64,000 bases of DNA from Kineosporiaceae bacterium SCSIO 59966 (lineage in GTDB: Bacteria; Actinomycetota; Actinomycetes; Actinomycetales; SCSIO-59966), in assembly GCA_020881835.1 (NCBI GenBank), contig CP052876.1:1798001-1862000 (forward strand), given 5' to 3'. Positions 5,377 to 59,753 of the stretch are shown here, piece after piece. The stretch's first letter is position 1. Every line of letters starts with the position of its first letter. The notes under the pieces are model-generated. The model was not told the DNA's origin. It ran no database searches and was given only the letters and a program-made list of their open reading frames with translations. The translations under genes were made by a program, and so were the position numbers.

Positions 5377-5524
5377 GGTGATCATGCAATCCCGCCACCC
5401 TGCCCACTGAGCGCCCGCTGCCAAAATGCTGGATTCAGCGCCGCCCTTGCGGCGTGTCGCGCCAACAACCCAGCATTCTGCGAGCCGGACGGTGGCCGGG
5501 GGGGTGGCGGGATTGCATGATCAC
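5377..5524. repeat. A-B-A' intergenic repeat module 1
   Basis: The most compact of four modules. Left: unit A at 5377-5399 (core TGATCATGCAATCCCGCCAC). Right: the same unit inverted (A') at 5503-5524. Between them is the B hairpin, arms AATGCTGGATT (5425-5435) and AACCCAGCATT (5467-5477), with the conserved GGCGTGTCGCGCC stretch in its right half. The whole is 148 bp with inverted-repeat ends and no credible reading frame. It fills the gap between the convergent ABC operon and the EamA gene, so a two-way terminator is one possible role; a MITE-like non-autonomous element is another. Confidence 0.9.
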
Positions 5525-6576
5525 GAAGGGGAGCTCTCCGGGTCGGGGACGGCGTCCGGGTCGGGGACGACGTCCGGGCCAGGGACGACGTCCAGCCCCG
5601 CGAGGACGTCCGGGCGCTCCCGCAGCTCGTCGTACCGGACGGCCAGGACGCCGGCGACGATGAGCACCCCGCCCGCAAGCTGCACCGGCATCGGCAGCTC
5701 CCCGAGCACGAGCCAGGCGAAGACCACGCTGAACAGCACCTCGGTGAGCCCGACGAAGCTGGCCATCTTGGAGCCCAGCCGCCGGGTGGAGGCGATCCCG
5801 GTGGCGTAGGCGAGCGCCGCGGCGACGACGACGAGCAGACCCGCGGGCACCCACCAGGGGACGAGCGCACCCGCCAGCCGGACGTCGTCCGCCGCCCAGG
5901 TCATCGGCATCACGCCGACCGCCCCGGCCACGGCCAGGGCGACGGTCGCGACGACCATGCCGCCCGCGGCCATGACGAGCGGCGGCAGCCCGGTGGTCTC
6001 CCGCGCGGACAGGACGAAGTAGAACGCCAGGCCGACCGCCGCACCGAGTCCCCACAGCGCGCCGCCGAGGTCGACGCGCATGCCGCCGGTGAGGTCAAGC
6101 ACGAGCAGCAGACCCGCCACCGACAGGACGACGCCGACGAGCGTCCAGGACCGGGGCCGCTGGCCGTGGCGCAGCCACAGCCACAGGACGACGAGGACCA
6201 CGCCGAGGTACTCCAGCAGCAGGGCGACGCCGACGCTGAGGGTCGTCACCGCGTTGAAGTAGAACAGCTGGACGGCGGCCATCGCGACGAGGCCGTAGAC
6301 GGTGATGAGACCGGCGTTGCGGCGCAGCACGTCCCAGCGGCCCCGCAGCGCGACGACGGCCGGCACGACGAGCAGCAGCGCCGCTCCCCCGATCCGGAAG
6401 GTGACGGCCGCACCGGGCGACCAGCCGGTCTCGAGCAGGGACTTCGCCAGCGTGCCCGAGCTGCCGAACGCCGCGGCCGAGACGAGTGCCAGCCAGATGC
6501 CGGCTGCATCGACGCCCGGACGGCGCCGCGCGGGGGTGGCGGGACGGTCCAGGACGGCAGGGCGCACGGCAGTCAC
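5521..6576 (-). CDS. EamA/DMT-family transporter
   Basis: 351 residues with ten hydrophobic segments in two five-helix halves (about residues 25-160 and 170-310), the EamA drug/metabolite transporter layout. The family exports amino acids and other metabolites from the cytoplasm; the substrate cannot be told. Start is a GTG at 6576. The C-terminal tail is a low-complexity Pro/Asp/Val repeat (VVPGPDVVPDPDAVPDP) ending at a TGA supplied by the TGATCA inside repeat unit A'. The tail may therefore have been reshaped when the repeat arrived. It is divergent from the CGNR gene and shares a 76-bp upstream region with it. Confidence 0.88.
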   Translation of the reverse strand: MTAVRPAVLDRPATPARRRPGVDAAGIWLALVSAAAFGSSGTLAKSLLETGWSPGAAVTFRIGGAALLLVVPAVVALRGRWDVLRRNAGLITVYGLVAMAAVQLFYFNAVTTLSVGVALLLEYLGVVLVVLWLWLRHGQRPRSWTLVGVVLSVAGLLLVLDLTGGMRVDLGGALWGLGAAVGLAFYFVLSARETTGLPPLVMAAGGMVVATVALAVAGAVGVMPMTWAADDVRLAGALVPWWVPAGLLVVVAAALAYATGIASTRRLGSKMASFVGLTEVLFSVVFAWLVLGELPMPVQLAGGVLIVAGVLAVRYDELRERPDVLAGLDVVPGPDVVPDPDAVPDPESSPS

Positions 6577-11746: not shown

Positions 11747-12400
11747 GGTGATCATGCAATCCCGCCACCCCTGGACGCCGCCCTCCTCGGTGATCATGCA
11801 ATCCCGCCACCCCCGGACAGCCCACGTCCACCCACAAAGTGCTGGGTTGCTGGCGCAACACGCCGCAAAAACCATGGTGAATCCAGCATTTTGTAACCGC
11901 CCGCAGCACCGTAGCAATGCATTCAATCGCCCGACGCCGCGACATCTCCCGTTTCGTGATCATGCAATCCAGCCACCTTGCAGAAGGCAGCCAGCAGCGG
12001 CTAGACCTGGTATCCCACCTCGCGACGTTGCACGTAGGCCGAACTCCGGGGAGAGCGCCAGGACGGCCCGGTTCCACCTGGAGGCTCGTCGCAGGACGGG
12101 CCCGGGATTGCCGTGCCCGCCTCTTCCAGATGGCGCAGTGCTGCCACAGGGCTCTGAATCAGTCAGAACTTCCCCGTGTCACGCCACTCCGCGCGGGCGA
12201 TGCGTGAAGAGGTGGCGGGATTGCATGATCACCGAGGGGGGCGGCGTCCAGGGGTGGCGGGATTGCATGATCACCGAGGAGGGCGGCGTCCAGGGGTGGC
12301 GGGATTGCATGATCACCGAGGAGGGCGGCGTCCAGGGGTGGCGGGATTGCATGATCACCGAGGAGGGCGGCGTCCAGGGGTGGCGAGATTGCATGATCAC
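11747..12400. repeat. A-B-A' intergenic repeat module 2 (expanded)
   Basis: Two A units at 11747-11769 and 11789-11811 (period 42), a B hairpin with arms ACAAAGTGCTGG (11834-11845) and CCAGCATTTTGT (11883-11894), a degenerate lone A at 11955-11977, about 230 bp with no recognisable content (11978-12210), then five A' units. It fills the 676-bp gap between the convergent VanY and LysM genes. The arrangement repeats that of module 1, with both arms amplified and the centre interrupted. I see no gene here; short frames across it just translate the repeat (MIMQSRHP or GWRDCMITE). Confidence 0.85.
12211..12400 (-). repeat. 42-bp tandem array, five A' units
   Basis: Inverted A units start at 12211, 12253, 12295, 12337 and 12379, an exact 42-bp period. 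The spacer is nearly constant (GAGGAGGGCGGCGTCCAGG); only the last unit has a base change in its core (GCGAGATTG). The same 42-bp period and a related spacer separate the two A units at 11747 and 11789, so both arms appear to share one ancestral repeat. Confidence 0.92.
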
Positions 12401-28797: not shown

Positions 28798-29065
28798 GGT
28801 GATCATGCAATCCCGCCACCCCGACCCGAGCCGCACCCCCTCGGTGATCATGCAATCCCGCCACCCCGCGAGCCGCACCCCCTCGGTGATCATGCAATCC
28901 CGCCACCCCCCCCGAGAGATGAAAGCTTGTCGTGGTTGCCATGTCAGCCCACGTCGGGAGGCACGCCTCCACCACAGAATGCTGCGTCGGGCACAGCCTG
29001 GCCGGCGTGTCGCGCCCACAACCCAGCATTCTGCGAGCGGGAGGGTGGCGGGATTGCATGATCAC
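28798..29065. repeat. A-B-A' intergenic repeat module 3
   Basis: Three A units at 28798-28820, 28843-28865 and 28885-28907 (periods 45 and 42), about 65 bp of unassigned sequence, a B hairpin with perfect 10-bp arms CAGAATGCTG (28975-28984) and CAGCATTCTG (29024-29033), and one A' at 29044-29065. It stands between miaB and miaA, which are both on the minus strand, so here it cannot be only a convergent terminator. The 60 bp beyond it (29066-29126) carry GTCAGCGGG-type short repeats before the miaB stop. Confidence 0.9.
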
Positions 29066-30655: not shown

Positions 30656-30754
30656 GGTGGCGGGATTGCATGATCACCGACGGGAGGGGGGAGGGTGGCG
30701 GGATTGCATGATCACCGAGGGGAGGGGGCAGGGTGGCGGGATTGCATGATCACC
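30656..30754 (-). repeat. Array of three A' units in the miaB/gluA divergent gap
   Basis: Units start at 30656, 30694 and 30732, an exact 38-bp period with AGGGGGAG-type spacers. There is no facing A unit and no B hairpin, so this is a half module. It lies 51 bp upstream of miaB and 86 bp upstream of gluA. Confidence 0.9.
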
Positions 30755-59461: not shown

Positions 59462-59753
59462 GGTGATCATGCAATCCCGCCACCCCACCCCCCTCGGTGG
59501 TCATGCAATCCCGCCACCCCACCTGCCGCCGTCCAGCTCGCAGAATGCTGGGTTGGTGGCGCGACACGCCGGCCATGCTGTGCTGAATCCAGCATTCTGC
59601 GAGGAGCGGGGCCCAGGGCAGGGAGCATCAGAGGCTGCCCTGCAGGGTGGCGGGATTGCATGATCACGGCGCGGAGGGGGCCCTGCAGGGTGGCGGGATT
59701 GCATGATCACGGCGCGGAGGGGGCTGTGCAGGGTGGCGGGATTGCATGATCAC
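59462..59753. repeat. A-B-A' intergenic repeat module 4
   Basis: A units at 59462-59484 and 59496-59518 (period 34; the second has TGGTCATG for TGATCATG), B hairpin with perfect 15-bp arms CTCGCAGAATGCTGG (59537-59551) and CCAGCATTCTGCGAG (59589-59603), A' units at 59646, 59689 and 59732 (period 43). It fills the gap between the convergent Kht antiporter and ftsK. B here is oriented opposite to module 1, since the GGCGCGACACGCC half is on the left. Confidence 0.92.

What the first reader, a model, noticed from the sequence alone, without database searches (positions are those of the whole stretch)
5421..5484. Conserved B core in both orientations
The half GGCGTGTCGCGCC with the arm AACCCAGCATTCTG lies right in modules 1 and 3, and inverted on the left in module 4 and, degenerate, in module 2. 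Flipping inside constant A/A' flanks could mean inversion by recombination between A and A', or independent insertions.
Basis: partly seen in the sequence, partly recalled or inferred. Interest (0 to 1): 0.6.

Follow-up and report, generated by a model that had tools for sequence, protein, structure and literature searches.

The report
Dispersed mosaic repeats targeted by IS110
The "flipping core" is one part of a gene-free repeat scattered over this bacterial chromosome in both orientations; nothing shows that it flips in place, but one of its building blocks is the exact landing site of a jumping gene that seems to find it with a guide RNA.

Summary
Module 1's core is a 59-bp imperfect palindrome (B, window 5422-5480) between inward-facing 18-bp A repeats. 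Genome-wide there are 436 A copies and 106 B halves (up to 2 mismatches). In 102 clusters examined, all 50 two-sided ones read A>...<A. B's conserved half has a same-direction A beside it in 80 of 90, never an opposite one, usually at 12 or 22-26 nt. The A frame is mirror-symmetric, so "core flipped inside A/A'" equals "whole module in the other orientation". No orientation bias was found. Left and right arrays share a private spacer in 1 of 25 testable modules (window module 2), so inversion in place is not the general explanation. The family resembles REP/BIME mosaics, but no Y1 (RAYT-type) transposase was found.

New finding: all seven IS110-type elements detected in the genome sit at the same point, ...TCGT|IS|GTGATCATGCA(A/G)TCC..., at the 5' edge of an A copy. 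Their downstream non-coding region folds into a loop carrying both matching guide halves (15 nt; at most 11 in 3000 shuffles). A is thus the landing site of a predicted bridge-RNA element, as REPs are for ISPpu9 or ISPa11. How A and B themselves spread is unknown.

The parts
5380..5397 (+). module 1, left A repeat (exact)
5422..5480 (-). module 1, B core, 59-bp imperfect palindrome; conserved half 5451-5480
   Evidence: folds as ssDNA with z -3.22
5505..5522 (-). module 1, right A repeat (exact); its TGA is the called stop of the gene 5521-6576
11750..11809 (+). module 2, left A array (2 copies, 24-nt spacer)
11835..11893 (+). module 2, degenerate B core (conserved half 11835-11864, 4 mismatches)
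11958..11975 (+). module 2, extra inner A copy (1 mismatch)
12213..12398 (-). module 2, right A array (5 copies); spacer identical to that of the left array
28801..28905 (+). module 3, left A array (3 copies)
28975..29033 (-). module 3, B core
29046..29063 (-). module 3, right A repeat, 12 nt from B
30658..30751 (-). A array without B (3 copies)
59465..59516 (+). module 4, left A array (2 copies)
59541..59599 (+). module 4, B core in the orientation opposite to modules 1 and 3
59648..59751 (-). module 4, right A array (3 copies)

Best explanation
The modules are copies of a REP/BIME-like mosaic intergenic repeat. SHOWN: there are two building blocks. A is a conserved 24-nt segment, (C/G)GTGATCATGCA(A/G)TCCCGCCACCC, facing inward in every two-sided cluster examined. 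B is a 59-bp asymmetric imperfect palindrome whose conserved half mostly sits 12 or 22-26 nt inside an A of the same direction. A occurs in tandem arrays whose spacers are mostly private to a locus. Modules lie in both orientations without detectable bias, so the opposite cores in the window are modules lying in opposite orientation. SHOWN: the 5' edge of A is the insertion site of all seven IS110-type elements detected in this genome, with GT at both junctions. INFERRED: the element's downstream non-coding region makes a bridge/seek RNA whose target loop reads CCTTCGT and GTGATCAT, so A arrays are harmless landing sites for it. INFERRED: arrays grow by slippage or unequal exchange between neighbouring A copies. 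INFERRED, weaker: B acts as a folded single strand in its own spread, by an enzyme I did not identify.
For: All 50 two-sided clusters inward. Conserved half of B beside a same-direction A in 80 of 90, opposite in 0, none in 10; canonical spacing in 64 of 80 on that side against 4 of 59 on the other. Orientation 46 to 60 (p 0.21), no replication bias (42 to 48), no transcription bias (14 sense, 19 antisense). Spacer identity 0.85 within a locus, 0.41 between. Seven of seven IS110-type elements at the same point of an A copy. Predicted guide loop: 15 nt anchored match, 0 of 3000 shuffles reach it; z -4.64. All seven targets have TCGT, which only 96 of 309 A copies have (p 3e-4). G.T against A.C departures in the B stem 107 to 10.
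Against: The agent that spread A and B was not found. The left guide's full 7 nt fits 3 of 7 targets, TCGT all 7; donor guides are only partly legible. No subterminal inverted repeats were found. The strand preference of B could partly come from shared descent and transitions at positions 46-48; its inner hairpin leans the other way (3 G.T, 10 A.C) and the second inner hairpin is poorly paired (202 of 336 cells). Clusters were not sampled at random.
Confidence: 0.75

Rival explanations
1. Each core inverts in place by homologous or site-specific recombination between its inverted A repeats, possibly by an IS110-family enzyme acting like the Piv invertase.
For: Module 2 has the same private spacer in its left and right arrays. 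Three of 25 modules have left/right spacers of at least 0.9 identity, permutation p 0.0003. Two right arrays resemble the opposite core edge more than their own (1495673: 14 against 4 nt; 1665353: 10 against 6). Piv belongs to the IS110 family (passage in PMC1525189).
Against: Two of those three pairs use a spacer type found at many loci; the mean left/right similarity is not above permutation (p 0.18). Opposite-side matches of at least 10 nt are 2 of 60 against 1.3% at random (p 0.67 for the whole distribution). Orientation in a symmetric frame needs no flip.
Confidence: 0.07
2. The modules are kept because they work, as bidirectional transcription terminators or as sites for a DNA-binding protein between convergent genes.
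For: 40 of 98 clusters lie between convergent genes against 63 of 371 gene pairs (p 3e-8); the A strand, which is the sense strand after both convergent genes, is C-rich (C 47%, G 20%), as Rho likes (recalled).
Against: 13 of 98 lie between divergent genes; B orientation does not follow transcription. Convergent gaps are about a quarter of intergenic bases, so part of the excess is opportunity. Function would not explain the locus-private arrays.
Confidence: 0.12
3. They are ordinary REPINs moved by a REP-associated Y1 transposase (RAYT).
For: More than 100 copies, intergenic, mosaic, tandem units that include flanks, hairpin core, as described in passages of PMC2817692 and PMC3116915.
Against: No Y1_Tnp match in the whole genome, while the same search rings in 5 of 14 control genomes. 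A itself does not fold better than shuffles (z 0.43 and 0.90) and starts GTGATC, not GTAG or GTGG.
Confidence: 0.06

Closest known systems
REP / BIME / REPIN extragenic repeats (mainly gammaproteobacteria)
   Same: Hundreds of extragenic copies, mosaic clusters, inter-repeat segments that differ between loci, a hairpin-forming core, use as insertion-sequence targets (passages in PMC2817692, PMC3116915, PMC1525189).
   Different: No Y1/RAYT gene found; A is not palindromic; the palindrome B is a separate block placed at a set distance from A.
REP-targeting IS110-family elements (ISPpu9, ISPpu10, ISPa11, IS621)
   Same: IS110 transposase domains; every detected copy in the repeat at one fixed point, 7 of 7, as ISPpu9 7/7, ISPpu10 7/7 and ISPa11 6/6 in PMC1525189; dinucleotide at the junctions; guide-like loop.
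   Different: The target is the A repeat of this lineage; the longer non-coding region is downstream, as in IS1111-type elements, but no subterminal inverted repeat was found.
A-plus-palindrome modules of the MAG Actinomycetales BWSM_131 (genome G015)
   Same: A-like repeats (97 matches to a degenerate A pattern) and a 59-bp imperfect palindrome (15 places); where both were seen together A faces inward, 6 of 6 rows.
   Different: Core arms are GCGACGTTC...GAACGTCGC; A spelling varies; its single IS110 match is not beside a convincing A-like site.

Membership tests
REP/BIME (RAYT-associated) | High copy number in extragenic space | tested here: met
   436 A and 106 B matches; 1 of 102 clusters inside a called gene (own rough gene caller)
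REP/BIME (RAYT-associated) | Repeat unit is an imperfect palindrome with a GTAG/GTGG-type head | tested here: not met
   A folds no better than shuffles (z 0.43 and 0.90, two copies) and begins GTGATC; B is palindromic but is a separate block
REP/BIME (RAYT-associated) | Cognate Y1 transposase (RAYT) in the genome | tested here: not met
   PF01797: 0 matches at E 0.001; control rings in 5 of 14 genomes
IS110 family | DEDD and Transposase_20 domains in the transposase | tested here: met
   PF01548 and PF02371 over cut-off for one copy; PF01548 for seven
IS110 family | Insertion at a specific short site around a core dinucleotide | tested here: met
   7 of 7 junctions, GT on both sides
IS110 family | Non-coding RNA with target and donor guides | tested here: inconclusive
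   Target loop predicted; donor guides partial; no RNA data
IS1111 subgroup | Subterminal inverted repeats of about 7-17 bp | tested here: not met
   None among windows of 6-15 bp in the 40 terminal bases of one copy; the downstream non-coding region, 263 against 94 nt, would fit
Invertible DNA switch | Both orientations of one locus present | not testable with these tools
   No second isolate or reads; indirect spacer test gives one private left/right match in 25 modules

The most novel reading that the evidence does not exclude
A RAYT-free way of making REP-like genome-wide mosaics: an unidentified enzyme copies the A-B unit through a folded single strand (B, one strand favoured), while an IS110 element has evolved a guide RNA that parks it only in A arrays. 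The same architecture with a different 59-bp core exists in a second actinobacterial lineage, so the plan and the core length are kept while the sequence is rewritten.
Probability: 0.25. Interest if true: 0.75.

Novelty: new variant of a known kind. Interest (0 to 1): 0.5.

Why it matters
It gives an actinobacterial counterpart of REP/BIME elements without the enzyme usually credited with making them, and two lineages to compare. The A repeat offers more than 400 natural target sites and seven natural insertions against which a legible guide can be tested, so the target choice of an IS110 element can be checked by sequence and then at the bench. It also warns that "inverted cores" inside symmetric repeat frames need a marker outside the frame before a switch is claimed.

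Tried and rejected
RAYT/Y1 transposase: none found. Rfam at gathering scores: no match in the window. Plasmids and phages: no blastn match for module 1. Viral contigs: no exact match for A or B patterns. B as a sense-strand mRNA element: orientation does not follow transcription. Link to replication direction: no bias (terminus assumed near 1.55 Mb). A pairs as ends of a gene-carrying transposon: the genes between nearby clusters looked, by eye on their translations, ordinary and different from locus to locus, except the IS110 pair. The first left/right spacer test on 13 modules gave p 0.03; with 25 modules the mean gives p 0.18 and the count of matches of at least 0.9 gives p 0.0003; two of those three matches use a recurring spacer type, so I keep module 2 alone. 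Clusters with several B halves were dropped before the count, and spacers outside 4-60 nt or 10-60 nt were left out. Literature: the A sequence gave 0 papers, RAYT with Actinobacteria and REP 0 papers; broader searches gave listings of mostly other subjects plus the five papers cited. All this is one open-access library.

Full report
WHAT IS THERE. The window lies at 1798001-1862000 of a single-contig genome of 3.095 Mb. The order is inferred to be Actinomycetales, because the genome rated "same order" has the coordinates of a MAG titled Actinomycetales bacterium BWSM_131. The core, here called B, is a 59-bp imperfect palindrome: conserved half CAGAATGCTGGGTTG(G/T)TGGCGCGACACGCC, a variable part, then CAGCATTCTG. 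Of 90 copies 86 have exactly this length. It is framed by an 18-bp repeat, A (GATCATGCAATCCCGCCA), with (C/G)GT before and CCC after also conserved.

ARCHITECTURE. I surveyed 102 clusters with 317 A copies (up to 3 mismatches) and 90 B halves (up to 8 mismatches) in 889,066 bases. The sample is not random: it joins contiguous stretches (464 kb around and including the window, 183 kb and 80 kb elsewhere) with stretches picked because a search had listed an A or B there. Those lists were capped (one search printed about 100 of 436 places, mostly plus-strand; one search scored 40 of 117 candidates). All 50 two-sided clusters have every A> left of every <A. Contents: 47 A>B<A, 14 A>B, 12 B<A, 3 A><A, 15 A> only, 6 <A only, 5 B only. 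The conserved half of B has a same-direction A within 80 nt in 80 of 90, an opposite one in 0, none in 10. That distance is 12 or 22-26 nt in 64 of 80, but in only 4 of 59 on the other side of B. In 14 of 69 copies a further shared stretch follows B.

ARRAYS. In the first 66 clusters A occurs 1 to 6 times per side. Spacers are alike within a locus (mean identity 0.85, 51 pairs) and unlike between loci (0.41, 1770 pairs). One 19-nt spacer type (CCCCGCACGACCCACTCGT and near variants) recurs at several loci. This fits amplification in place.

DOES THE CORE FLIP? Read from the other strand, A>B...<A becomes A>...B<A, so an inverted core inside symmetric flanks and an inverted module are the same thing. 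Orientation genome-wide is 46 forward and 60 reverse (p 0.21). With dnaA at 641-1126 and a terminus assumed near 1.55 Mb, 42 of 90 are co-leading and 48 co-lagging. Between co-directional genes 14 are sense and 19 antisense. Array spacers give an internal test, since an exchange between a left and a right A would carry spacers across. Of 25 modules with spacers on both sides, 3 have a left/right match of at least 0.9 (permutation p 0.0003), but two of these use the recurring spacer type; mean similarity is not above permutation (p 0.18). Only module 2 (window 11750-12398) shares a private spacer. Spacers match the core edge of their own side by at least 10 nt in 8 of 83 arrays, of the opposite side in 2 of 60, of random loci in 1.3%; at 8 nt the figures are 16 of 83, 7 of 60 and 6.2%. 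In-place inversion is therefore not the general cause, and at most rare.

WHERE THEY SIT. With a simple codon-bias gene caller of my own, 40 of 98 clusters with both neighbours called lie between convergent genes, against 63 of 371 neighbouring gene pairs (p 3e-8); in the 464-kb stretch alone it is 10 of 21. Convergent gaps make up about a quarter of intergenic bases there, so part of the excess is opportunity. 13 of 98 lie between divergent genes. In 16 of 99 gene ends facing an A, the stop codon is the TGA inside GTGATC.

FOLDING OF B. The four window cores fold better than shuffled sequence as single-stranded DNA (z -2.97 to -4.29), while A does not. In the outer stem of 84 distinct copies, departures from Watson-Crick pairing on the conserved strand are G.T in 107 cells, A.C in 10 and other in 20. 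Predicted energy favours that strand in 77 of 84 (RNA) and 81 of 84 (DNA). In the ten outermost pairs alone it is 35 against 7. This suggests recognition as a folded single strand, RNA or DNA. Copies are related, and at positions 46-48 transitions alone would give G.T, so I rate it moderate. The short inner hairpin leans the other way (3 G.T, 10 A.C), and a second inner hairpin is poorly paired (202 of 336 cells).

THE IS110 LANDING SITE. Two nearly identical transposase genes turned up between A copies. The genome has seven matches to the IS110 transposase family. All seven elements (1704 or 1706 bp) have the same junctions...TCGT|AGTAATGG...TTACGCTG|GTGATCATGCA(A/G)TCCCGCCACC. So each sits at the 5' edge of an A copy, in one orientation relative to it, with GT on both sides. 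Two lie within 2 kb of each other. One copy's protein hits PF02371 and PF01548. The longer non-coding region is downstream (263 against 94 nt with the start codon I chose), as in most IS1111-type elements (passages in PMC11187229 and PMC11208160), but no subterminal inverted repeat was found. This region folds into a stem with an internal loop (z -4.64). The loop's two strands carry CCTTCGT (left target plus core) and ATGATCAC (complement of core plus right target), the layout described for the target-binding loop in PMC11208160 (passages). The combined match of 15 is not reached in 3000 first-order shuffles (maximum 11). The left 7 nt fit 3 of 7 targets in full, TCGT all 7. As a further check, TCGT precedes only 96 of 309 A copies (p 3e-4 for 7 of 7). 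Donor guides are only partly seen. None of the seven lies in the window.

RELATIVES. At one mismatch 4 of 99 genomes match, two of them once. B halves are found in none of the 395 other genomes of the order searched. A looser A pattern hits 7 of 198 genomes: this one 405 times, BWSM_131 97 times, five others 1 to 9 times. BWSM_131 has its own palindrome with arms GCGACGTTC...GAACGTCGC: 16 places with exact arms, of 59 (13), 60 (1) or 48 bp (2), and 15 places of the 59-bp pattern at up to 3 mismatches. Of 18 rows printed (two spurious, one a repeat), 6 have an A-like repeat within 600 bp, all facing inward.

COMPARISON. REPs/BIMEs share copy number, extragenic mosaics, differing inter-repeat segments and use as IS targets. 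The defining RAYT was tested and not found and A is not a palindrome, so I do not file the module as a REP; it looks and may work like one. The IS is a new member of the REP-targeting IS110 kind. Papers were read as passages only.

VERDICT. The switch reading is not needed. The real content is a lineage-restricted mosaic repeat family whose A block is the landing site of every IS110-type element detected in the genome, with a legible predicted guide.

Noticed in passing
G000 1395587-1396843, 2793751-2795007 and five more (L165-L171): Seven IS110-type elements, 1704 or 1706 bp, all inserted at the 5' edge of an A repeat; two of them within 2 kb of each other (2586439 and 2588258).
   Followed up: yes
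L042 and L043 (G000 646598-646966 and 650640-651003): Larger tandem units of about 130 bp that contain a whole B core plus A, three in a row.
   Followed up: no
upstream of several A copies, e.g. G000 1665314, 1878780, 2007959: A degenerate A-like sequence, roughly GTGATCAGTCGACAATCCCC, often precedes the outermost A; it may be a second repeat type or a decayed A.
   Followed up: no
window 5521 and 15 further gene ends: The stop codon of the neighbouring gene is the TGA inside the A repeat (16 of 99 gene ends facing an A), and no called gene ran further into an A on that side.
   Followed up: partly
G100 and G142: Two genomes of another family carry a few copies (9 and 3) of GTGATCATGGACTTCCGC-like sequence, perhaps unrelated or coding.
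   Followed up: no
L146 and L156 (genome G015): Two 48-bp cores of the second genome contain GCGACACGCCGGCG, close to the inner hairpin of B, and may link the two core types.
   Followed up: no
L172 (G015:C268): The only IS110 match of the second genome; no convincing A-like site beside it.
   Followed up: partly
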